Shown here: in pieces, positions 1,342 through 26,399 of the stretch
How positions within the stretch are numbered: the first letter of the stretch is position 1
Layout of the letters: every line of letters begins with the position of its first letter
Source of the DNA: a virus
DNA length: 26,707 nucleotides
Direction: 5' to 3' (one strand)
Virus record (IMG/VR): IMGVR_UViG_3300024519_000011
Span: 1 to 26,707 of that record
Notes under the pieces: generated by a model
What the model saw: the letters and a program-made list of their open reading frames with translations, nothing else
Told to the model about the DNA's origin: nothing
Database searches by the model: none
Made by a program: the position numbers and the translations under genes

Positions 1342-2646
1342 ATGGCTTTCACTAGAACAGATTCCGGAAGTAATTTAGGATTAATATTGGCAATGGACAA
1401 CAATTCATTCACTCATGCCAGTGTACCCAATTTTAACTTTAGTAATGTATTAAATGCAACTCCTTTATGTGAATTAAGTATCATAGATACTCAGAGTAGC
1501 TTTATACGAGAACGTTCATTGGGATTCTTATCGATTTACTTCACTAATACTACCGATGATGTTACTGACAAATCATCAGTTGTCACTGGTATCATAGATG
1601 ATATTGGAACTACTCAAGGCGTTAGTGGCAATACCACGCAAGTCATAAAATGGTCAGCAGGTACTCAATCACAATTATCAAATACTACGAATGCGTGGAA
1701 TGGTACTAGCGTACATGCACTTGCTAAAATATTTGAAGAACGTAAAGTTGATTTCAATAATATGGCTGAGGGTAAAGTTGATGTTGCTGATAATATGTGG
1801 TGGAGATTTCCTCAGGATACTATATGGGAATCATTAGATACATGCGTATCTCATTCATATATTAGAGATGATTATTTATTTTGGGCATGGGATGACGTTA
1901 ATGACATCTATAAAATATCATCATTTAATTTAGAGATGGCTCAGGATGATAGATATTTAATGATTCAGAGTGAATCAGCTAAGACATCAACATCTGCAGG
2001 TAAGTCATTATTAGATAATCCAAAAATTACTGTATGGGCATTTGATAATCACGTTAAGCGAAATGAATTAGGTAAAAATAGAGATAAACTATACCCTAAT
2101 TTATACCTATCCGGTTCCAAGGATGGTGAGTATAAATCATCTAGTGTAGAGAAAGGTTGTTTCAGTGCAGTATTGGGTGAGATGGGTGATACTAGTCAAG
2201 TAACTATAGCGGAAGCTACTGACATTAAAGACCCAAATACAACATTTGGGCCTCGTAAAGTCGTTAGACATTGGCCCAATAATACACATAAATTTTACTC
2301 ACTAGCTCAAATGTATAGAGAATATAAATTGGCTACATATGGTAAAGTAGTGTATGTACAAATATATAATCAAGTAGGTCCACCTATCGGCTCTAAGGTT
2401 ACTGTATTGTGTGCAGGCAATGATTATAAAATTCGTGTGTTTTCATTGGATAGACATAATTCTGATAAATATATACTAGCCGAGAAGTTCTTTGATTGGG
2501 GAACAGAAAAACCAAATAGATTATTGAAAACGGTTCCCACTTCAAGTGAATGGGTCACCACACTAAAATTTATTTCAAATAATGTGAATGATGGTGACCC
2601 CGACCATATCGCTTCTATATTGAAAGCATTGGGAGTTAATGCATAA
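1342..2646 (+). CDS. Baseplate hub protein, gp27-like
   Basis: A 434-residue protein, slightly longer than T4 gp27 (391). Its position directly before an OB-fold spike gene matches gene 27/gene 5 pairing. Residues about 157-197 contain a segment with IWESLDTCVSHSYIRDDYLFWA and then YKISSFN. This resembles the T4 gp27-type tube-like domain, in which W-D-x-L-x-x-x-x-x-R-A and an aromatic DYLFF strand recur. The N-terminal region, with LCELSIIDTQSSF, fits a beta-rich tube domain. Ribosome binding is by GAGCGAG, followed by an AT-rich spacer ending in the ATG. The stop codon overlaps the start of the next gene by one base, so the two are probably translated together. Trimeric gp27 would form the torus linking the spike to the tail tube. 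Similarity is inferred by eye. Confidence 0.6.
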   Translation: MAFTRTDSGSNLGLILAMDNNSFTHASVPNFNFSNVLNATPLCELSIIDTQSSFIRERSLGFLSIYFTNTTDDVTDKSSVVTGIIDDIGTTQGVSGNTTQVIKWSAGTQSQLSNTTNAWNGTSVHALAKIFEERKVDFNNMAEGKVDVADNMWWRFPQDTIWESLDTCVSHSYIRDDYLFWAWDDVNDIYKISSFNLEMAQDDRYLMIQSESAKTSTSAGKSLLDNPKITVWAFDNHVKRNELGKNRDKLYPNLYLSGSKDGEYKSSSVEKGCFSAVLGEMGDTSQVTIAEATDIKDPNTTFGPRKVVRHWPNNTHKFYSLAQMYREYKLATYGKVVYVQIYNQVGPPIGSKVTVLCAGNDYKIRVFSLDRHNSDKYILAEKFFDWGTEKPNRLLKTVPTSSEWVTTLKFISNNVNDGDPDHIASILKALGVNA

Positions 2647-3950
2647 TGGGTAAGTGGACTGAGAAATATTATGATGCTATCGTTATTACTGATGACGTTG
2701 ACCCGAATCATGCAGGTGCGGTTCGTGTTAAAATATTGGGTGTGACTGATGGTCTTACTGATGAACAACAACCATTCGCACTACCATCTGTTAATACAAT
2801 ACAAGCAGTTCCTACAAAAGGAACTATTATGCGTGTATCATTTGACGATGGTGATGTAAACAAACCAAAATACTTCCAAGTTAGTCCTGAGAAACAATTA
2901 CTTCCAATTGAATACGTAAGTAGCTATCCTAATATAAGTGTAGCCAATCTTGGTGGTGATTTCTTTAACATGACACATGATAGAGCTGAACGAAATACAA
3001 TTATTACACATCCGAGTGCGAGTAGAATACAATGGGATGGTAAAGGTCGTATTGCACATGATAGTGATAAAGGATATGCTAATGCAGGTAGAAAGGCATA
3101 TCAAGATGGTGGTGCTAAATTACATTCAGTATTAACTGAGGCTACAATTGATGTATTCTGTTGTACGCCTGTCGGAAATAATATTGATGATGGTGGAGCA
3201 TTTCAGGGGTCTGAGTATTTCTTTGTTACTCATATTTCTAAATCAACTGTTAATGCTATCAAGGGTGTACTTGATTCTGATTTTAATACCCAAGTTGAAA
3301 ATGCAAATGATATAGGTACGGAAAGTGCAGCTACTAGGGAATTGTTAAATGTAGATGAAATTGTAGTTAGAAATATTGAATTTGTAGCAACTGAGTCTAT
3401 AGTTGTTCGGGCCGATAAAGAAGTGCGAAAAATTATAATTGATTACACTGGCCAAAACAACTTCCCTGCAATGGGTGAGCAAATTCTTGATAGTAACAAT
3501 AAAGTAAGTTCTCATTATTTAATTGGACAGCAAGATGGTGCATCTAAAATAGAGGGTCAGAATGCTCCAGCGGATACACAAAGCGGTGCTGATTTAATAA
3601 AAGGATTTATACAATTTGCTGAGTTGAATGATGACTGTTATGCAGGTTCAAATTATCCACTTATAGGTCAGAAAGATAACGAAGACACAATAAGTATAAT
3701 GTTGGTTAGTGATGGATTGACATTCAGTGATTTTCAATATGCTAGTATTAACCAAATTATTCAAAATGCTCGAGTTGTATTTAAGGATGATGGTATAAGA
3801 GCTGCATTGCTACCTCAATCACTTGACCCACTCGATTTACTTATATCAGGCACCTCAGCGGCCGCTGGTGGACCTTTAACTAAATGGGCAGAGTTTGATG
3901 ACACTAAGGTACTTGGTGGCGTTGATGACGGTCTTACAGGACTAATATAA
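2646..3950 (+). CDS. gp5-like spike/hub protein with degenerate amidase-fold domain
   Basis: A 434-residue protein starting in a TAATG overlap. Residues about 8-88 look like the gp5/VgrG OB-fold: AGAVRVKILGV, then ALPSVNTIQAVPTKGT and VSFDDGDVNKP. Residues about 240-400 follow the order of an Amidase_2 (N-acetylmuramoyl-L-alanine amidase) domain: KIIIDYTG, VSSHYLIGQQDG, CYAG, then TISIMLVSDG and an FSDFQYASINQII helix. The catalytic positions are changed. The usual zinc His of IxIHxT is Asp266, the HAG His is Tyr332, the Glu of SIGIELV is Met352, and the C-terminal GHxD His is Gln391; only His290 of HYLIG remains. T4 gp5 carries a lysozyme in the comparable position. I infer a spike with a non-catalytic peptidoglycan-binding amidase relic. 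Confidence 0.65.
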   Translation: MGKWTEKYYDAIVITDDVDPNHAGAVRVKILGVTDGLTDEQQPFALPSVNTIQAVPTKGTIMRVSFDDGDVNKPKYFQVSPEKQLLPIEYVSSYPNISVANLGGDFFNMTHDRAERNTIITHPSASRIQWDGKGRIAHDSDKGYANAGRKAYQDGGAKLHSVLTEATIDVFCCTPVGNNIDDGGAFQGSEYFFVTHISKSTVNAIKGVLDSDFNTQVENANDIGTESAATRELLNVDEIVVRNIEFVATESIVVRADKEVRKIIIDYTGQNNFPAMGEQILDSNNKVSSHYLIGQQDGASKIEGQNAPADTQSGADLIKGFIQFAELNDDCYAGSNYPLIGQKDNEDTISIMLVSDGLTFSDFQYASINQIIQNARVVFKDDGIRAALLPQSLDPLDLLISGTSAAAGGPLTKWAEFDDTKVLGGVDDGLTGLI

Positions 3951-5746
3951 TGGCTAAGTGTATTAATCAAATAATAAATAGAGATGTTAAAGTTAGAGGA
4001 CCAGTTCCCCTAAGCAGTAAAGTTGCAGGTTCAAGTAAAGTTGACGACGAAAACTTCTTCATATCATTTAAAGATAGTATTGCTCGCAGTGCTAAGCGAC
4101 TTCGCAATGTAGACTGTAGTGAAGTGGTATTAGATTTCTTTAGTGGTGGTAATAGTGAGAGTGTTAAGACTGGATATGATTGGGTTTCAGATAATGTCAA
4201 TCTTCAGACCGCCATGGAACAATTTGGTGGACTTGCTGATAAATTATCACCTAGTGTAGGCTTTGATGCAAATAAACTCACTACAATATTCTGTGTAACG
4301 ATTACCAATATATTCAGAAGTCTTACATTTTTTATTGAGAATGCATTGAAAGTTGCTCTTGGATTATTCAAAATAATCGATAAGTATCTAAATCAATTAG
4401 AAAATGCAATCCAAGATTTCATTGACGTAGTTCGTGATTGCATTGTGTCAGTTATGGTTGATGCAAAACTTGCATTGAATAAGCTAGTAAATAATATTCT
4501 GGATTTTGATATTGTATCAGATTTGATGACCGCATGTCCATGCGTTGCTGAAATTTTTGCATCTATATTTAGTTGTACGGATGATAATGGCACCGCATTA
4601 ACTCACCCCGATGAAATACTTGAATGTATGGTAGATAAATATGCATTAGACCCATCGGAATTATTGGGTCCCGTTAATGAATTTATTGATGATACATTAA
4701 TTGCAAATATTCAACGTGGATATAATATTCTTCAGGAATCAGTTAGCTTCATGATGGAGTTATTGATTACACCTCTTCGTGAATTAATGAAGGCATACTG
4801 TTTCCTATTGACTGAAAAAATTAATGTAACGTATATAATTAAAACATTGGGTCCATCTAAATGTTTATTGGTATACACAACTGAAGTAGATGAATCAGGT
4901 CGTACATATGAAGGTATGAGTATTCTAGATATGATAGAAACTCTTAAGTTATGGACTGGATGTTTTGAATTTATATGTGCTCCCTTTATTGACGACACTA
5001 AGCTAACTATTAAAAAATTACGAGAAGACTTTAGATTAGATGCTAAATACTGGAATAATGTATTTGCACTTGATATTTATACGTCATGTGTAATGATAAA
5101 TATAACTGGACAAACAACTAGACCAACAGCAGTAAGAGAAGTCTATGCCGCCGGAAATGGTAAAGGTAAGGAAGTATTTACCGGTATAACTGATACATTT
5201 AAAGACCTTGGTAAAATTGATATAGAATCCAATGCAAATAATAACCCAATTGGTGAGGTATACTCATCTATTAAATTTAAAGGTGGTCCAGAAAATGAAG
5301 AGACTCCTATCATTCAAGGTACTGTTGATTTTAAAAGTGGTGTAGAAGATAAAATATTGGCAGTAACTCGTACAATAGGTGCTACAATTGGTGAAGAGCC
5401 GTATTATGAGCGTTTTATGAATCTACTTACATGGGATGCTAAATATCGTAAAAGTCAAGTACATATTGATTTAATTACATCAACTGTTGATAACTTTAGA
5501 GCATCTACTACACCAGTCAATGATACTAGACAAGTAACTAATGCGATAGATGATAGTAATGAATCACAAGTCATTTCAGGACCACCCACAGTAGTAACTG
5601 CATTACATTTGCCGAGTTATTCAATTCCAGATGATTTTAATGAAGAGAGTCAAGTTAATATTCTCACTAGTACTGCACCAAATCGAATGGATACTGAAAA
5701 TTTAGTTGAATATTATAATAGATGGTTCGGTGACATTGTGGAGTAA
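3950..5746 (+). CDS. Unknown 598-residue protein in the baseplate operon
   Basis: I do not recognise this family. The ATG overlaps the spike stop codon as TAATG, so the product is probably made together with the hub and spike and is likely a virion component. Residues about 110-320 are mostly helical with long hydrophobic stretches (around FRSLTFFIENALKVALGLF and VSFMMELLITPLRELMKAY). There are 13 cysteines, including ACPC near residue 196, which is many for a phage structural protein. The C-terminal third (from about 400) is polar and Gly/Asn/Thr-rich, like a flexible or beta-structured tail. It could be a hub or tape-measure-chaperone-like component, but nothing seen decides that. The predicted helices might act in membrane contact during DNA entry; this is speculation. 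Confidence 0.85.
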   Translation: MAKCINQIINRDVKVRGPVPLSSKVAGSSKVDDENFFISFKDSIARSAKRLRNVDCSEVVLDFFSGGNSESVKTGYDWVSDNVNLQTAMEQFGGLADKLSPSVGFDANKLTTIFCVTITNIFRSLTFFIENALKVALGLFKIIDKYLNQLENAIQDFIDVVRDCIVSVMVDAKLALNKLVNNILDFDIVSDLMTACPCVAEIFASIFSCTDDNGTALTHPDEILECMVDKYALDPSELLGPVNEFIDDTLIANIQRGYNILQESVSFMMELLITPLRELMKAYCFLLTEKINVTYIIKTLGPSKCLLVYTTEVDESGRTYEGMSILDMIETLKLWTGCFEFICAPFIDDTKLTIKKLREDFRLDAKYWNNVFALDIYTSCVMINITGQTTRPTAVREVYAAGNGKGKEVFTGITDTFKDLGKIDIESNANNNPIGEVYSSIKFKGGPENEETPIIQGTVDFKSGVEDKILAVTRTIGATIGEEPYYERFMNLLTWDAKYRKSQVHIDLITSTVDNFRASTTPVNDTRQVTNAIDDSNESQVISGPPTVVTALHLPSYSIPDDFNEESQVNILTSTAPNRMDTENLVEYYNRWFGDIVE

Positions 5747-18932: not shown

Positions 18933-19766
18933 ATGACTTCAACAAATACACCTGTGTATTCAGGTAGCAGTGAAGATGATTATGTAACTAAACTAATGTT
19001 ACATGAAGTGTCAAAAACTGCTGTAATTACCCGAGATGAAGAACAAGCTCTATTTAAAGAATATGAGACTGCATCAAATCGACGAAAGCAACAGATAAAA
19101 ACCAAGTTAGTTCAGTCAAACCTCAGATTTGTCCTTAAGATTGCACTGCAATATAAAGCAAAGATGTCAGTTGATGTAAATGAAGTAATGACTGAAGGTA
19201 AGATTGGGTTACTGAATGCAGTGGACCTATTTGATTGGCGTAAGGGAAATAAGTTTATTTCATTTGCAGTTTGGCAAATTAGATGTAGAATCAGTAAATA
19301 TCTTGAAGAACGTGACTTAATACGGTTACCGGCCCATCAGCGAGTTAAGCTTAACCGAGCTCGTAAAGAGATGGACTCTGAGGATTTCGATGATGATATT
19401 CAATATCTACATCGCATAGCCCAATCACATAGTTCACTTGATAGTCCAGTAGGTGATGAGGAAACTATATTAGGTGATTTAATTCATGATGAACATGCCG
19501 AAGATGCTGATATAAATTGCTTACTTAGAAGTATAAGAAACGTAACAAGAGATGTTCTTGAAACTGTTCTAAGTGATGATGAATATAAAGTCATTACACG
19601 GTTATTTGGGTTATGTGGTTATGAACAGATAACGTTACGTGAAACTAAAGAATTGATAGGTAAATCTCATGAACGAGTACGTCAACTAAGAGACCGTGCC
19701 TTAAAAAAACTATCTAAGCATAAAGATATCAAAGAATTCCGTTATTCACTTAAATATTTACTGTGA
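18933..19766 (+). CDS. Sigma-70 family RNA polymerase sigma factor
   Basis: A 277-residue protein that directs RNA polymerase to promoters. All main regions of a group 2/3 sigma factor are visible. Region 1.2 is about residues 14-46 (DDYVTKLMLHEV, DEEQALFKEYE). Region 2 is 58-127 (LVQSNLRFVLKIALQY, EVMTEGKIGLLNAVDLFDW, FISFAVWQIRCRISKYL, the -10-binding helix). A short region 3 starts near LIRLPAHQR. Region 4 is about 207-262 with a helix-turn-helix (ITLRETKELIGKSHERVRQL). T4 uses a reduced late sigma, gp55; this one keeps a region 4 and so could also bind a -35 box. GGAGG precedes the ATG. It may read the TATAAAC promoters seen here (inference). Confidence 0.9.
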   Translation: MTSTNTPVYSGSSEDDYVTKLMLHEVSKTAVITRDEEQALFKEYETASNRRKQQIKTKLVQSNLRFVLKIALQYKAKMSVDVNEVMTEGKIGLLNAVDLFDWRKGNKFISFAVWQIRCRISKYLEERDLIRLPAHQRVKLNRARKEMDSEDFDDDIQYLHRIAQSHSSLDSPVGDEETILGDLIHDEHAEDADINCLLRSIRNVTRDVLETVLSDDEYKVITRLFGLCGYEQITLRETKELIGKSHERVRQLRDRALKKLSKHKDIKEFRYSLKYLL

Positions 19767-19776
19767 AGTATGATGA

Positions 19777-20820
19777 ATGTTCAAATTCCTCAAAGATTTA
19801 TTTACAGTTGAAGGTCCTCATATACCCGATGGGTTAATTGATGATAAATTCAACTGCATTGAAACTAAAAAACGTAATTTAAATGTAGAAGAAGGAATTG
19901 ACGATGAGATATTTTATATTCATGAAATACCATCTCCATATCCGAGGACGCATATAATGCCAAGTAAATTAGAAACACCAGATAATATTAATACCAATCA
20001 AATCGAAATACTCGATGATAAGACTGGTAAAAAAATGATTTTGGATTCAGCTCAATTAGCTGAACGACAAGAGAAAATACCAGATGGTGTAAATGTACCC
20101 GGATTGGGTAAAATGGGCGGTAAGAAATCACAAGGCCGACAACAGGCTCGCCCACAAGGTCAATCACAGGGTCAGTCACAGGGTCAGTCACAGGGTCAAC
20201 CACAAGTTGCCACCAATCCCGGAAATCAATCCCCAATACCGCAACAAGGATATCCACAAACAGCTCCACAGCAGGGATACCCACAAGCGGCTCCACAACA
20301 AGGATATCCACAAACAGCTCCACAACAGGGATACCCACAAGCGGCTCCACAGCAGGGATATCCACAAGCGGCTCCACAGCAGGGATACCCACTAAATGAA
20401 TATGGTCAACAAGTACCTGTTCAGCAAGTGCCTGTTAATCAAGGAGCCGGTCAATATTTACCACCAAGTGAAATTGCCATGATTGAAGGTTCATATCATG
20501 TGTACATTGATTTACCGGGAGTTGCTAAAGATACTCTTAATGTAAGCTTTAATGCAGGTACATTGACGGTTAGTGGTGAAAGAGGTAGTAGTGTAGAGGT
20601 TTTAAGAAAAGGTATAAAGGGCCCTCGCGGACGCAAGGACCCAATATTATCTGAACACAATACAGTCCCACCATTTTTGGTTGGAAAGTTTGCATTTAAA
20701 TATCCGTTCCAAAGACTTATAGATGAGTCTAAGTTAGAAGCGAATATGGTCGATGGAGTATTACATGTAATGTTACCACATCGAGTAAAGGGTGAAGAAG
20801 TTTCAATTCCTATTATGTAG
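19777..20820 (+). CDS. Hsp20/alpha-crystallin protein with Gln-rich repeat linker
   Basis: A 347-residue protein, about twice a normal Hsp20 (about 140-160). Residues 1-110 are an unknown N-terminal domain. Residues 126-143 are QGQS repeats. Residues 155-208 are six tandem 9-residue units, PQQGYPQ(T/A)A. From about 232 comes the alpha-crystallin domain: [37 protein letters not shown], then [16 protein letters not shown], with an IPI (I-x-I) motif at the C-terminus (344-346). Small heat-shock proteins hold unfolded proteins, and some T4-like phages encode plain versions. The Q/G/Y/P tract resembles a phase-separating low-complexity region. The stop lies inside a terminator hairpin. It follows the sigma gene by ten bases. 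Confidence 0.85.
20155..20199 (+). repeat. 12-bp tandem repeats coding for QGQS
   Basis: The units run CAAGGTCAATCA, then CAGGGTCAGTCA twice, ending CAGGGTCAA. They encode three QGQS units plus QGQ in the Hsp20-repeat gene. The near-identity suggests slippage expansion. Confidence 0.85.
20239..20400 (+). repeat. Six 27-bp tandem repeats coding for PQQGYPQ(T/A)A
   Basis: Six in-frame 27-base units; ACAGCT and GCGGCT alternate for the final two codons of each, and the last unit diverges. The pattern alternates T-A and A-A units, suggesting duplication of a two-unit block. Confidence 0.9.
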
Positions 20821-22010: not shown

Positions 22011-23819
22011 TTATCTTCTAAAGAATAAGGTACTTTCTTCCCGGTCGTCCTCATCCTCTTCATAAATTTCTTCAGGTATATATTCAGCTGCATTTGAAAG
22101 GTCTTCTTGTTGCTGAGCAGCATCTGACATTTCCTGAAGCATTCTATCCCTACTATTCATTTCATCTTCACTGCTTAATATAATTTCATCCTCTGCTACT
22201 TGTTTGATATTTACTTCAACAATATTACCATAATATAAAGGTGATTGAAGATAATAAGGTATCCAATATAACGAAGTAATGTGGTCATCGTGATTACCAC
22301 CTAACGCACCCCATTTACTTTGAGTTACTTGACCAAATGAATGTAGTTCATTGATAGTTACTTCATCGTGAAGTTTTATGAATTTACGTTGAGTATATGT
22401 TTTTAATAGAATAACAGCATTCTGTTTTAATTTCTCACTTGCCCATAGGCCCATATGACGACCACTAGGGTCGAAGTGAAGTAGGTTATCATATTCTGCT
22501 GTGCTGTGGAAGTACTTAGTAGCGGCGATTCCCGGACCATTCTGCTCTACTATTAATGATGGGTCATTATACTTCTTTAACAGCACTCTAGCCTTTTTAC
22601 AGAACTCTTCAATCTCCATAGAATTCGAATACATAGTACATACTTGATGTGCGGTAATATTTGATTTAACTAAGAATATCTGAAGTACGGTATTATCTTT
22701 ATATACACCATAACCTGAGTCAAGAGATGCTACATATTCCCAATTCTTCGTATCCAATTCTTCTTTTTTACGAGGTAGTTCCCATATACTAATAAATTTG
22801 GGTAAAGTTGGTATTTTTAATGGGTCACTACTTTTCAATGTCTTTAAAAAGTGATGGTCAATTAATGTTGATACCGAGCCGATAAAATCACATTTATACT
22901 CTTGGTTAAATCGAATTTCACCGATACGATTTATTTCATCACGGGCCCACTGCTCATCACGTCCCGGTACAGCATTCCATGCAATTTCACTCTTGACATA
23001 ATCGACTGAGTTTGCATTTTCAGGTTCAACAGCTTTATTCCACATATGGAAGAAGTGATTCATACCCGATGGCGTTGATGTAATAATTACTTTAGTGGTT
23101 TTACCTGATGAAATTGTAGGGAATACAGATGCCATAAACTCATCGGCGATATGTGGTTTAATAAAGGCGAACTCATCAAGAAACAGTAGGTTAATTGAAA
23201 GACCACGGATACCATCAGGAGAAGTAGCAGCACAAATAATACGAGTGTTATTAGTAAACTGAATTCCACGCTTATTCCATTGCATTACACCCGGTTGCAT
23301 CCACATAGGAAGCATCATATAACTATCTCGTAGTTGTTGAAGCTGTTCCTGTGCAAGGTTCAATTTGTTACCAAGAACTGCAACAACTTTATCCGCATTG
23401 AATAAAGCATACCAAAGAATATAGGCACGAGTTGTCGCTGAATTGTGTGAAAGAATGTCACTCGTGTAAAATCGATGATTTTTGTCATTTAATTCTAAAT
23501 CATACATATGTGATTTAGAATCTAAATGAGTAACCGAAGTGACTATATCATACCCATCTTTAGTATGGATAAAATCACCTATAGAAAGGTCTTTTACGAA
23601 TACCTCATCAAGTACATCATTATTAACATTTGAGTGAAATACTATATGCGTATCAGCACATTTTAACGAATGTCTGGTTGTACATAATTCCCATACATCA
23701 TAATCAACTGTTTTATGACAATATTTTATATCAGACCAACCAGTATCCGTCTTGACTTTAAAACCTTTAGATTTTATCGATTCAATAAATTTTCGTTTTA
23801 CTTCATTTGATGGTTTCAC
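22011..23819 (-). CDS. Split intein C-fragment fused to terminase large subunit C-part
   Basis: A 602-residue precursor. It starts at a GTG preceded by AAGGAA, overlapping the endonuclease gene by 17 bases. Residues 1-126 are the intein C-part: a strand with FKVKTDTGWSDI, a block-B-like region (LCTTRHSLKCADTHIVF), and the C-terminal FYTSDILSHN with His125-Asn126. Ser127 is the first extein residue. Residues 127-602 are the terminase: SATTRAYILWYALF completes the Walker A loop, LLFLDE gives Walker B Asp215-Glu216, STP at 248-250 is the coupling motif, and the nuclease has Asp367 (SLDSG), Glu425 (VEQNG) and Asp511-Asp512. After splicing with the N-part it would give a 558-residue packaging motor; T4 gp17 has 610. 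Confidence 0.9.
   Translation of the reverse strand: MKPSNEVKRKFIESIKSKGFKVKTDTGWSDIKYCHKTVDYDVWELCTTRHSLKCADTHIVFHSNVNNDVLDEVFVKDLSIGDFIHTKDGYDIVTSVTHLDSKSHMYDLELNDKNHRFYTSDILSHNSATTRAYILWYALFNADKVVAVLGNKLNLAQEQLQQLRDSYMMLPMWMQPGVMQWNKRGIQFTNNTRIICAATSPDGIRGLSINLLFLDEFAFIKPHIADEFMASVFPTISSGKTTKVIITSTPSGMNHFFHMWNKAVEPENANSVDYVKSEIAWNAVPGRDEQWARDEINRIGEIRFNQEYKCDFIGSVSTLIDHHFLKTLKSSDPLKIPTLPKFISIWELPRKKEELDTKNWEYVASLDSGYGVYKDNTVLQIFLVKSNITAHQVCTMYSNSMEIEEFCKKARVLLKKYNDPSLIVEQNGPGIAATKYFHSTAEYDNLLHFDPSGRHMGLWASEKLKQNAVILLKTYTQRKFIKLHDEVTINELHSFGQVTQSKWGALGGNHDDHITSLYWIPYYLQSPLYYGNIVEVNIKQVAEDEIILSSEDEMNSRDRMLQEMSDAAQQQEDLSNAAEYIPEEIYEEDEDDREESTLFFRR
23442..23819 (-). other. Intein C-fragment (126 residues)
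   Basis: Codes for residues 1-126 of the downstream precursor. It carries the block B-like His residues, block F and the terminal His-Asn before Ser. Block B lies here and not in the N-fragment, so the split is much nearer the intein N-terminus than in ordinary split inteins. This is the arrangement known from atypically split inteins such as AceL-TerL. Confidence 0.85.
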
Positions 23820-25053
23820 TTTCTAGAAATTCCTTACAATTACGCAACTCTCGGTAAACATTTTTTTTAATATCTGAATGCCATATAACTAATACTTCAT
23901 AATCCTTAGATTTGGCTAACTCGATTTTATGCTTATCATAATCCCAAATTTCTTGAGCTGTTTTATCTTTATTAAATCTAATCATATGTTTATGTGGAGT
24001 ATCATCAGGTTTATATATAGCAGGGTTTGCGTGAGTTCTATCACCATTATATTCAATGATTTTGTTTTTGTATGTAAAATCAAACGCCCTATACCTTCTT
24101 GTATCAGTAGTAGATGTATATAGAATTAATTCAGATGACCCCATTAGGACCTCAGAACGGTCAATTCCTTCTGTGTCTATAAGATTCTCAAAAAATTTAA
24201 TTGAGACTGCACTGATTGAATTTGAACCCCTTAATCGTGTTCGGACAATTTCTTTCATTTCTTCAGGTGATTTTGAATTCATTGTATTCATCCATTTAGC
24301 GGTGATTTTATCTCTAACGATTTTAGCCTCATCGATTGATATATCATTTCTATTCGCAATTGCTTGTACCGTATTGGTTTGTTGCCTTTTATATACCATG
24401 TCAGCTGCGTGTTCTTCATCAATATTATATTTATTCATATAATATTCTATTCGAGTAGGTTCTGATTTAGGGCCTTTATTATTTTGTACGGTTTGTATAA
24501 ATTCTTGTTTTTTAATAATTGATTCTTCTATTGAAAACCCTTTTCGCATGTAAAACTCTTCTGACCATGGAGATAATTCAGACTTACCATTTCCATACAT
24601 TGGATTTTTATCACCTATACGACTTTCAGTTAAATATTTAATATATTCATCAGTCTCTAGTCGCTCTTCAAATTGTTTTTTATAATCATCAACTTTCATA
24701 TCATGAATAGTGGATATGTGTTTGTATAATTGTTTACCACGAAATTTACATATTTGACATTCAGGTAATTTATAGAACTCATCATCCCCTATTTTTAATC
24801 TGAGTTTTTCAGTCTCTTTTTTAATTCGTTCAGGGTCTCTGAGACGTTTTTTACTAGCTTCCGCTGTATACGCTCTATGGTCAACTATATAAGATTCGTC
24901 AATCAAATCATTAGTTCGTAACTCTTTAGCATTTATCTTATGCTGCCGACTAACATGACCTATTAAAGATGAAAAACACGCTCCTTTCCTAAACGATGTT
25001 GAATTGTAGTTACAATATGGACATTTAAGTATATGAGAATTATTCATTTTCAT
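23803..25053 (-). CDS. Vsr-like (EDxHD-type) homing endonuclease
   Basis: A 416-residue protein. Two zinc-finger-like motifs start it: Cys11-Cys14...His33-His38 and Cys99-Cys102...His112-His117. Then RIGDKNPMYG (NUMOD3-like) and helical repeats around residues 160-270 follow, probably binding DNA. The C-terminal domain, about 300-400, has RAFDFTYKNKIIEYNGDR, then HANP, then AQEIWDYDKHK and EVLVIWHSD. This is the Vsr/EDxHD nuclease pattern, with candidate catalytic Asp325, Glu334, His341 and Asp373. This family is known as free-standing nucleases of fractured intein genes. The first ATG (25053) overlaps the terminase N-part by 14 bases; an ATG at 25047 has better spacing from the AAAGGA site. 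Confidence 0.85.
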   Translation of the reverse strand: MKMNNSHILKCPYCNYNSTSFRKGACFSSLIGHVSRQHKINAKELRTNDLIDESYIVDHRAYTAEASKKRLRDPERIKKETEKLRLKIGDDEFYKLPECQICKFRGKQLYKHISTIHDMKVDDYKKQFEERLETDEYIKYLTESRIGDKNPMYGNGKSELSPWSEEFYMRKGFSIEESIIKKQEFIQTVQNNKGPKSEPTRIEYYMNKYNIDEEHAADMVYKRQQTNTVQAIANRNDISIDEAKIVRDKITAKWMNTMNSKSPEEMKEIVRTRLRGSNSISAVSIKFFENLIDTEGIDRSEVLMGSSELILYTSTTDTRRYRAFDFTYKNKIIEYNGDRTHANPAIYKPDDTPHKHMIRFNKDKTAQEIWDYDKHKIELAKSKDYEVLVIWHSDIKKNVYRELRNCKEFLESETIK

Positions 25054-25393
25054 TTTCCTTTAGTAGATTAAAAAATTCTTCGACGGTAAATTCCATTTCT
25101 TCACCATCTTCATTTTTAATATACATTAATTCATCAGGAAAAATGCATTTTCCACATTGTCTGGGAAATTTTACAATATTATATCGGTATGCGTCAAACT
25201 TTGCGATTAATTCTTCTTGGAAATCCCACATCCCAAATAATTGCATACCATGGTCTTTGGTATTAATGTAAACATAATTCTTAATAAAGTAATTAGGGTC
25301 CTTAACACACTTCTTAATTTCACGAAGCTGCCAAGGCTCAACTGGTACGGACTCAGTGGAATCACGTAGATTATTGATTCCATTAAACGCCAT
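25040..25393 (-). CDS. Terminase large subunit N-part fused to split intein N-fragment
   Basis: A 117-residue protein. I chose the ATG at 25393 (GAGGT seven bases upstream), which overlaps the previous gene by 11 bases; a TTG at 25399 is less likely. Residues 1-82 are the terminase N-extein: EIKKCVKDPNYFIKNYVYIN, then MWDFQEELIAKF and NIVKFPRQCGK, which is the Walker A motif up to its lysine. Residue 83 is Cys, starting a 35-residue intein N-fragment (CIFPDELMYIKNEDG, then MEFTVEEFFNLL) that stops before block B. It needs the C-part precursor at 22011-23819 for protein trans-splicing. Without splicing, the ATPase loop and nuclease would be on separate proteins, so packaging should depend on it. 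Confidence 0.9.
   Translation of the reverse strand: MAFNGINNLRDSTESVPVEPWQLREIKKCVKDPNYFIKNYVYINTKDHGMQLFGMWDFQEELIAKFDAYRYNIVKFPRQCGKCIFPDELMYIKNEDGEEMEFTVEEFFNLLKENENE
25043..25147 (-). other. Intein N-fragment (35 residues)
   Basis: Starts with Cys directly after the Walker A Lys, followed by a typical intein block A (a D-x-x-M/V strand, an acidic EDG turn, then a helix TVEEFFNLL), and ends at a stop codon. The Cys1 nucleophile is intact. Its shortness is unusual; standard split-intein N-fragments have about 90-120 residues. Confidence 0.85.
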
Positions 25394-26360
25394 GTCCAAT
25401 ACCTCGGCGATATATGAATTTACACTCGAACTCCTGTTGAAAACGTTCTATACCAATGTTTTCTATCATATGTTCTTTCCATTGCACATCTTTCCCGGGA
25501 ATACCAACATCCCATGGAATCTCCATTGCGTAAAAATTACTATAATTACATATAGCATCACTGAACATCCTCATAAAATGATTGGGTCCATTTGGAGTTG
25601 ATAGTATATGGATTTGAGTGTCTCTCCCTGCCATCAATGTTGGCATAACTGAAGCCATAAGCTCATCAAAAATTTCTCTTTTAATATATGCAGCTTCGTC
25701 TATGAATAGATAGTTAACGCCATATCCTCTCATAGAATCAGTCGTACATGCAGCTGCAATTACTCTACATCCATTTTCTAATCGTATAACTTTTTTATTT
25801 TTTTCTAATAACTTCGGTTGCATGAATTCAGGTAGAGAGTCTAATATTTCTCTAACTTTAGTAAGTAACTCAGTAGTTGTATTGAATTTATTTGACATAA
25901 GTACTATGGTTTTATCACAGTTGGATATCATATAGTGAACTATATTTACTAACTGCAGCATAGTCCCTCCAATTTGACGAGACTTATTTGTGATAGTTCG
26001 CTTGCGGTGATTAAATTCACTTAATAAATCTCGCTGGAAATCATGTAATATCAAATTTGTATAACCATTATCAACGGTGTTATATGATATAGCATTCTCG
26101 GCGAAAAATATAGGGTCATCTATACATTGCTTATAGAATTTTAATTGCGATGCAGTAACACGGGCTTCTTCATCGATATCAACATCTACGTCGTCGAATA
26201 CAAGACCATCGAGAAAATTATCTATCTTACTTTGTCTAGTATCAGCAAATTCTCGGACTGCTAACCGAATAATTTCACTTCGATTACTATCAAGTATCTC
26301 AGATAAATGGTCGATAGTCTTATCTTCATCTTCTTTGATGTATATGTTCACTCGCTTCAT
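25383..26360 (-). CDS. Terminase ATPase paralogue with ribbon-helix-helix N-terminus, Walker A changed
   Basis: A 325-residue protein. I chose the ATG at 26360; a GTG at 26396 would sit almost on the promoter. Residues 1-42 look like a ribbon-helix-helix DNA-binding domain (MKRVNIYIKEDEDKTIDHLS, then SNRSEIIRLAVREFA). Residues about 71-320 align along their length with the terminase ATPase domain encoded next door: DFQRDLL, SRQIGGT (126-133), LFIDEAAYI (Asp221-Glu222), STPNG (254-258) and FQQEFECKFI. The Walker A lysine is replaced by Gly132, so ATP hydrolysis is doubtful. The nuclease domain is absent; the gene ends overlapping the terminase N-part. It may serve as a pac-site-binding small-terminase substitute or motor regulator (inference). 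Confidence 0.8.
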   Translation of the reverse strand: MKRVNIYIKEDEDKTIDHLSEILDSNRSEIIRLAVREFADTRQSKIDNFLDGLVFDDVDVDIDEEARVTASQLKFYKQCIDDPIFFAENAISYNTVDNGYTNLILHDFQRDLLSEFNHRKRTITNKSRQIGGTMLQLVNIVHYMISNCDKTIVLMSNKFNTTTELLTKVREILDSLPEFMQPKLLEKNKKVIRLENGCRVIAAACTTDSMRGYGVNYLFIDEAAYIKREIFDELMASVMPTLMAGRDTQIHILSTPNGPNHFMRMFSDAICNYSNFYAMEIPWDVGIPGKDVQWKEHMIENIGIERFQQEFECKFIYRRGIGHGV

Positions 26361-26399
26361 TGGTAAAGGTCTCTTTTTTTGGAGGTGTATATACACACT

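What the first reader, a model, noticed from the sequence alone, without database searches (positions are those of the whole stretch)
22011..25393. Terminase large subunit split by an atypical split intein with a nuclease gene in the gap
The sequence shows the terminase Walker A motif broken at GK|S. The upstream product ends in a 35-residue intein-like piece starting with Cys, and the downstream product begins with 126 intein-like residues ending in His-Asn before Ser. A separate endonuclease gene lies between, and all three reading frames overlap (14 and 17 bases). Fractured genes with split inteins and Vsr-like nucleases, and atypically split inteins with short N-fragments such as AceL-TerL, are known. 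Here the insertion is in the P-loop of an essential motor and the N-fragment is only about 35 residues. Packaging would depend on trans-splicing. The Cys1, His-Asn and Ser+1 residues are intact, so splicing is expected.
Basis: partly seen in the sequence, partly recalled or inferred. Interest (0 to 1): 0.95.

Follow-up and report, generated by a model that had tools for sequence, protein, structure and literature searches.

The report
Fractured phage terminase with split intein
A phage's DNA-packaging motor gene is broken in two inside its ATP-binding loop by a self-splicing protein element, with a DNA-cutting gene in the gap; the arrangement looks real and functional, and it belongs to a known kind of selfish element that proves common in the ATPase genes of large phages.

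Summary
On the minus strand TerL-N (25393-25040) ends ...PRQCGK + 35 intein residues. A 416-aa nuclease ORF (25053-23803) follows, then TerL-C (23819-22011), which starts with 126 intein residues ending HN before Ser. Overlaps are 14 and 17 nt. A second contig carries the locus at 99.95% identity, and a diverged relative (L019-L021) has the same three-piece layout. Intein fragments and nuclease are under purifying selection (dN/dS 0.11, 0.10, 0.28). A close relative (L004) has the uninterrupted site ...CGKSATT.... The C-fragment model is a HINT fold (top hit VidaL intein); the nuclease's nearest solved folds are I-Bth0305I and Vsr. The neighbouring terminase-like gene is no substitute: it lacks the Walker A lysine and any nuclease domain. 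Trans-splicing is therefore the best reading, untested at the bench.

It is a new member of a known kind (fractured genes; AceL/GOS-TerL split inteins). In 308 phage records, nearly all those inspected contiguous, the same TerL P-loop site carries a related intein. A survey adds split relatives at GK|S/T in gp41-type helicase, Rad50-like and ABC ATPases, and three contiguous TerL inteins whose endonuclease is encoded entirely in another reading frame.

The parts
25148..25393 (-). TerL N-extein (82 aa, ATG start at 25393) ending in Walker A ...FPRQCGK
   Evidence: PHROG TerL families match (phrog_5989 4e-15); 93.9% aa identity to the intact TerL of L004
25043..25147 (-). Split-intein N-fragment, 35 aa, Cys1
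   Evidence: aligns with contiguous TerL inteins of Kuja and KpS110 at the same site; 76.5% aa identity and dN/dS 0.114 against L019
23806..25053 (-). Free-standing Vsr-like homing endonuclease, 416 aa, with Zn-finger-like N-terminus and NUMOD3-like segment; overlaps TerL-N by 14 nt and TerL-C by 17 nt
   Evidence: hits annotated VSR endonuclease; weak NUMOD3; consensus YDF..KKIIEFNGDYWH.NP; nearest solved folds I-Bth0305I 3r3p and Vsr 1cw0/1vsr; dN/dS 0.279
23442..23819 (-). Split-intein C-fragment, 126 aa (GTG start), with CADTH block, HN end
   Evidence: dN/dS 0.103 against L019
22014..23441 (-). TerL C-extein (476 aa): Ser+1 (P-loop Ser), rest of ATPase and RNase H-like nuclease domain
   Evidence: Terminase_6N 1e-13; phrog_2 and phrog_36964; 91% aa identity to L004 over 267 aa
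25386..26396 (-). Terminase ATPase paralogue with ribbon-helix-helix N-terminus, Walker A lysine lost (SRQIGGT), no nuclease domain; probably starts at ATG 26360
   Evidence: Terminase_6N 6.8e-15, RHH_1 3.1e-7; 42% identity to TerL-C; same gene in L004 and L019

Best explanation
This is a fractured terminase large-subunit gene. A class 1 intein, split after its first helix, sits in the Walker A motif between GK and S. A free-standing Vsr-like homing endonuclease gene lies between the halves. The three overlapping ORFs are probably made from one transcript by coupled translation. The 35-aa N-fragment docks on the 126-aa C-fragment, Cys1 and Ser+1 ligate the exteins, and a 558-aa T4-type TerL with a rebuilt PRQCGKSATT P-loop is released. 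The P-loop Ser is both the +1 nucleophile and a future Mg-coordinating residue. The nuclease would cut uninterrupted terL alleles at the GK|S coding site, and repair would copy in the whole 1.7-kb cassette. Shown: anatomy, homology, fold of the C-fragment, empty site, selection. Inferred: splicing, cutting, homing, translational coupling.
For: Exact anatomy. Second contig and diverged relative with the same layout. Empty site. Homologous contiguous inteins at the same GK|T/S site in phage isolates (308 records match the C-fragment). Low dN/dS for IN 0.114, IC 0.103, nuclease 0.279 and exteins 0.05-0.12, with dS 1.2-2.4. HINT fold. Vsr/I-Bth0305I-like nuclease. Split relatives at GK|S/T in TerL, gp41-type helicase, Rad50-like and ABC ATPases. 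P-loop Ser as +1 nucleophile is documented for mycobacterial DnaBi1 (PMC6195587).
Against: No experiment. No known intein profile passes its curated cut-off for the window pieces; recognition rests on the alignment profile and fold. The nuclease model is weak (pLDDT 68; Foldseek E 0.35 at prob 0.94). dS is near saturation, so ratios are approximate.
Confidence: 0.87

Rival explanations
1. The split terL is a decaying pseudogene and another terminase in the unsequenced part of the genome packages DNA.
For: The record is only a 26.7-kb fragment. The paralogue next door shows that terminase genes do duplicate here.
Against: All splicing residues and TerL motifs are intact; dN/dS about 0.1 across fragments and exteins; two virus lineages keep the structure; relatives have their intact TerL at this locus.
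Confidence: 0.05
2. The two halves work as separate subunits without splicing, as reported for a ribonucleotide reductase split by a homing endonuclease (PMC10448857).
For: Precedent for functional two-piece enzymes in phages.
Against: The break lies between K and S of the P-loop, and both halves carry conserved intein pieces, which that model does not need.
Confidence: 0.02
3. The neighbouring RHH-ATPase paralogue is the working motor and the split gene only supplies the nuclease half.
For: Paralogue conserved upstream of terL in L004 and L019, with a terminase-like ORF in the same place in L005; it keeps Walker B-like LFIDEA and the TPNG motif.
Against: Walker A lysine lost (GGT in window and L004, GMS in L019), no nuclease domain, higher dN/dS 0.50 against L019. 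Intact TerL coexists with it in L004 and L005.
Confidence: 0.03
4. Assembly or sequencing error splits a contiguous intein with an in-frame nuclease.
For: Contiguous inteins at the same site exist.
Against: Second contig 99.95% identical and an independent diverged relative with the same layout; the nuclease is in its own frame with 27 and 83 stops in the other two.
Confidence: 0.02

Closest known systems
Fractured genes with split inteins and Vsr-like homing endonucleases (Dassa et al. 2009; paper not held, recalled from knowledge and cited in PMC11766414 and PMC13014065)
   Same: Enzyme gene broken in two by a split intein with a free-standing Vsr-like endonuclease gene in the gap
   Different: Those I recall are mainly DNA synthesis and repair enzymes, mostly with the canonical split; here it is TerL, the P-loop, and a short N-fragment. 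I could not read the paper to check whether TerL was among its loci.
AceL-TerL and GOS-TerL atypically split inteins (PMC11766414, PMC13014065)
   Same: Split intein in a phage TerL, split after the first helix (S2), N-fragment 25-37 aa
   Different: From memory their native C-extein is CEFL, i.e. the later CEFLGS site, not the P-loop. That other TerL site is also occupied by inteins in L026, L030 and Serratia phage 92A1.
Contiguous TerL P-loop inteins of Ackermannviridae (Kuja, KpS110, Vi01, 3M, BX-1) and a contiguous TerL intein in Campylobacter phage IBB_35
   Same: Homologous intein; the same GK|T/S site in the Ackermannviridae examples read here
   Different: One polypeptide, no free-standing nuclease in the gap
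VidaL intein
   Same: Best fold and profile match to the C-fragment; atypically split, Ser at +1 in the crystal construct
   Different: N-fragment about 16 aa, split at S1 (PMC13014065)
P-loop inteins of DnaB (mycobacteria) and RadA
   Same: Insertion in the Walker A P-loop, P-loop Ser as +1 residue in DnaBi1 (PMC6195587)
   Different: Contiguous, cellular, class 3 for DnaBi1
I-Bth0305I / Vsr nucleases
   Same: Catalytic-domain resemblance of the gap nuclease
   Different: I-Bth0305I is intron-associated; Vsr is a mismatch-repair nicking enzyme (both from general knowledge)

Membership tests
Fractured gene (split intein + free-standing endonuclease) | Conserved enzyme gene in two ORFs that together equal the intact homologue | tested here: met
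   82 + 476 aa exteins match the intact TerL of L004 across the junction
Fractured gene (split intein + free-standing endonuclease) | Complementary intein fragments at the break | tested here: met
   35 + 126 aa, homologous to contiguous inteins at the same site
Fractured gene (split intein + free-standing endonuclease) | Separate endonuclease gene in the gap, of the Vsr-like family | tested here: met
   416-aa ORF; hits annotated VSR endonuclease; motif and nearest folds 3r3p, 1cw0, 1vsr. Match by fold is weak.
Fractured gene (split intein + free-standing endonuclease) | Endonuclease cuts the empty allele | not testable with these tools
   Empty allele exists (L004); cutting needs an assay
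Class 1 split intein | Cys/Ser/Thr at 1, block B His, terminal His-Asn, Cys/Ser/Thr at +1 | tested here: met
   C1, CADTH with invariant H58, H125-N126 invariant, S+1
Class 1 split intein | HINT fold | tested here: met
   C-fragment model pLDDT 87.5; 37 PDB matches at E up to 0.001, all inteins or intein-like domains. Whole N+C complex not modelled.
Class 1 split intein | Protein trans-splicing | not testable with these tools
   Needs co-expression
AceL/GOS-TerL group | TerL host, split after helix 1 (S2), short N-fragment | tested here: met
   35-aa N-fragment whose end aligns after the block A strands and EFTVEEFFNLL helix-like segment; literature split sites in PMC13014065. Helix itself not modelled.
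AceL/GOS-TerL group | Same insertion site | tested here: inconclusive
   Window site is the P-loop; AceL site recalled as CEFL, not verified here
T4-type terminase large subunit | Terminase_6N ATPase with Walker A/B and RNase H-like nuclease | tested here: met
   Terminase_6N 1e-13; phrog_2 match through residue 536; Walker A complete only after ligation. Nuclease domain by PHROG alignment, no Pfam Terminase_6C hit.

The most novel reading that the evidence does not exclude
The window is one state of a large, largely undescribed lineage of atypically split inteins specialised on the GK|S/T junction of P-loops. It has spread between unrelated phage ATPase genes (TerL, gp41-type helicase, Rad50-like, ABC ATPase) together with Vsr-like nucleases. 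It exists in three coding architectures: fractured; contiguous without nuclease; and contiguous with the nuclease gene overprinted in another reading frame (L062/L064, L103, L113), where the precursor frame is kept free of stops across the whole nuclease.
Probability: 0.55. Interest if true: 0.72.

Novelty: new member of a known kind. Interest (0 to 1): 0.52.

Why it matters
DNA packaging by this phage would depend on two peptides splicing through the ATP-binding loop of the motor, so an essential late function is tied to a selfish element that the phage cannot simply lose. Diverged alleles, an empty-site relative and contiguous homologues at the same site make a good system for asking how split inteins arise and home. 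The family is also a source of short-N-fragment inteins with Ser or Thr at +1, useful for protein labelling. The overprinted-endonuclease variant offers a testable case of overlapping genes inside an intein.

Tried and rejected
Pfam, NCBIfam and single-sequence searches with the joined 161-aa intein were near or below threshold, so the aligned family profile and the fold were used instead. Pfam found no domain in the window nuclease above its cut-offs. The C-fragment tree is mostly unresolved: contiguous and split forms and host genes intermix (6 host-gene changes, 7 split/contiguous changes), so I claim shared ancestry but no direction. Conservation of the overprinted polypeptide itself was tested and is only marginal (11-24 of 500 shuffles as high), so I claim only stop avoidance. 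The split intein in the RecA/UvsX-like gene of L024 appears to sit a few residues earlier in the P-loop and was left out of the GK|S/T set. Paper searches found no description of split P-loop TerL inteins or of an endonuclease overprinted in an intein, but the library is open-access only and Dassa 2009 is not held.
Full report
WHAT WAS CHECKED. The window is an IMG/VR virus record of exactly 26,707 bases. On the minus strand three ORFs overlap: TerL-N (25393-25040), a 416-codon ORF (25053-23803) and TerL-C (23819-22011), with overlaps of 14 and 17 nt. TerL-N ends ...FPRQCGK followed by 35 residues starting with Cys. TerL-C begins with 126 residues ending ...SDILSHN, followed by SATTRAYILW. Joining the exteins gives 558 aa from ATG 25393. 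Each start has a plausible ribosome site (GAGG, AAAGGA, AAGGA upstream).

REAL, NOT AN ARTEFACT. A second contig, L003, matches the window at 99.95% over 7,917 nt. Three further contigs (L019-L021, nearly identical to each other and about 70% nt identity to the window) have the same order: RHH-ATPase paralogue, TerL-N with intein N-fragment, 415-aa nuclease, TerL-C with intein C-fragment, with short ORF overlaps. Between window and L019/L020 the NG86 dN/dS is 0.114 (N-fragment), 0.103 (C-fragment), 0.279 (nuclease), 0.116 (TerL-N extein) and 0.045 (first part of TerL-C extein). dS is 1.2-2.4, so these are approximate, but they speak against neutral decay. L004 carries the uninterrupted gene, PRQCGKSATTRAYILW, with 94% and 91% aa identity to the two exteins. 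The insert is therefore window 25147-23442, 1,706 nt, placed between the K and S codons of Walker A. L005 is a more distant intact allele.

WHAT THE PIECES ARE. The C-fragment family profile hits solved inteins: VidaL 4.9e-11, gp41-1 3.3e-8, the Cat atypical split intein 2.5e-6. The AlphaFold2 model of the C-fragment alone (pLDDT 87.5) matches inteins and intein-like domains throughout the top of the list, VidaL first (E 8.4e-7, query TM 0.75). Splicing residues are present: Cys1, invariant CADTH, invariant HN, Ser+1. The gap ORF matches phage proteins annotated VSR endonuclease. It shares the KIIE(Y/F)NGD..H.NP motif of the gap-ORF alignment. The nearest solved structures are the homing endonuclease I-Bth0305I and Vsr (family profile E 0.0019 for 3r3p; Foldseek prob 0.94 and 0.93 at weak E). 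TerL itself is T4-type (Terminase_6N; PHROG TerL families).

IS THERE A BACK-UP TERMINASE? The ORF just upstream (25383-26396) has a ribbon-helix-helix domain and a terminase ATPase domain, 42% identical to TerL. Its Walker A reads SRQIGGT, without the lysine, and it has no nuclease half. The same gene precedes terL in L004 and L019; L005 has a terminase-like ORF in that place with an intact Walker A but no detected RHH domain. The window paralogue is not an intact TerL. The record is a fragment, so a copy elsewhere cannot be excluded, but relatives keep their TerL at this locus.

MECHANISM. Best-supported reading: coupled translation of three overlapping ORFs; docking of the short N-fragment on the C-fragment; N-S acyl shift at Cys1; transfer to Ser+1; Asn cyclisation; release of a TerL with a rebuilt P-loop. 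Mycobacterial DnaBi1 is a published case in which the P-loop Ser is also the splicing residue, and for RadA the P-loop intein disrupts ATPase function (PMC6195587). The nuclease would spread the cassette into empty terL alleles. Anatomy, homology, fold and selection are shown here; splicing, cutting and homing are inferred.

HOW COMMON IS IT. The C-fragment finds 308 phage records, mostly Ackermannviridae. Those inspected are nearly all contiguous; Kuja and KpS110 show the intein at the same GK|T site, and Vi01, 3M and BX-1 read the same way. Delftia phage PhiW-14 is an isolate with a split P-loop TerL and no nuclease; its TerL-N ORF is unannotated. Serratia phage 92A1 has TerL fractured at a different site with a separate ORF between. 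In viral contigs 261 relatives were found. Of 63 distinct loci inspected, 47 are split (26 TerL, 13 gp41-type helicase, 7 Rad50/gp46-like, 1 ABC) plus one split locus whose C-extein was too short to assign; 4 were scored contiguous by script and L101 is contiguous by eye; the rest had no located N-fragment. The junctions located read GK|S or GK|T, but the search pattern for N-fragments required a G-x-C junction, so this is partly by selection. Pfam confirms DnaB_C (2.5e-18) and ABC_tran (1.7e-19) for two hosts; the gp46/Rad50 assignment rests on my reading of the sequence. N-fragments are mostly 32-47 aa, so the window's 35 is typical.

COMPARISON WITH THE KNOWN. The arrangement is that of fractured genes. 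AceL-TerL (25 aa N-fragment) and GOS-TerL (37 aa) are split at the S2 position in TerL (PMC11766414, PMC13014065), though I recall their site as CEFL. A contiguous TerL intein is also reported in phage TaPaz (PMC8228797). I therefore class the window as a new member of a known kind.

A VARIANT SEEN ON THE WAY. In L062/L064, L103 and L113 the TerL-intein frame runs unbroken (739 to over 1,000 codons) across a Vsr-like nuclease gene of 301-318 aa coded in another frame (offset 2). Stops in the TerL frame within the nuclease: 0, 0 and 0, against 17.7, 19.1 and 18.1 expected from synonymous-codon shuffles (minimum seen 7-10; none of 5,000, 5,000 and 3,000 reached zero). Split controls L122-L125 show 37 stops against about 39 expected. 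The three nucleases are 34-44% identical, so the open frame has survived much divergence. This suggests a contiguous precursor with an overprinted endonuclease, which I have not seen described in the papers available.

SCORE. The window finding is solid, but its kind is known and the site is populated: interest 0.52. The family-level pattern and the overprinted variant deserve more.

Noticed in passing
L062:2765-4984 with nuclease 3099-4013; L103:1475-4516 with nuclease 1830-2786; L113:2521-5670 with nuclease 2897-3802: Contiguous TerL + P-loop intein ORFs stay open across an entire Vsr-like nuclease gene coded in another frame (0 stops against 17.7, 19.1 and 18.1 expected): an endonuclease overprinted inside an intein gene.
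   Followed up: partly
window 25383-26396; L004:2984-3955; L019:2054-3091; L005:1872-2696: A terminase ATPase paralogue with RHH DNA-binding N-terminus and (in window, L004, L019) a lost Walker A lysine sits directly upstream of terL, where a small terminase would be expected; in L005 a terminase-like ORF there keeps Walker A and shows no detected RHH domain. Possibly a repurposed packaging or regulatory protein.
   Followed up: partly
L026:4989-6059 (and L027): TerL of a 242-kb viral contig appears broken into three pieces by two split inteins, one at the P-loop and one at the CEFLGS site.
   Followed up: no
L014:1979-2446 and 2495-4252 (Delftia phage PhiW-14): Cultured phage with TerL split at the P-loop by a split intein without nuclease; the TerL-N ORF is not annotated in GenBank.
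   Followed up: partly
L011:1133-4110 (Serratia phage 92A1): Cultured phage with TerL fractured at the later (FKQEH|CAEFHG) site, a 236-aa ORF between the halves, annotated as separate terminase and hypothetical genes.
   Followed up: no
L029 and L045 (same contig 3300029268_000006): One 132-kb viral contig carries homologous P-loop split inteins in both an ABC-type ATPase and a gp41-type helicase, raising the question of cross-splicing.
   Followed up: no
L020:2902-5394: A second, contiguous intein with a LAGLIDADG-like region (by eye) interrupts the same TerL at the ITS|TPNG motif, so one TerL needs one trans- and one cis-splicing event.
   Followed up: no
window 19777-20820: Hsp20-like protein (PF00011, 9.7e-8) with a proline/glutamine-rich repeat region (PQQGYPQ-type) near the packaging genes.
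   Followed up: no
window 18933-19766: Phage-type sigma-70 family factor (phrog_351, 2.4e-40), possibly a late-gene sigma factor.
   Followed up: no
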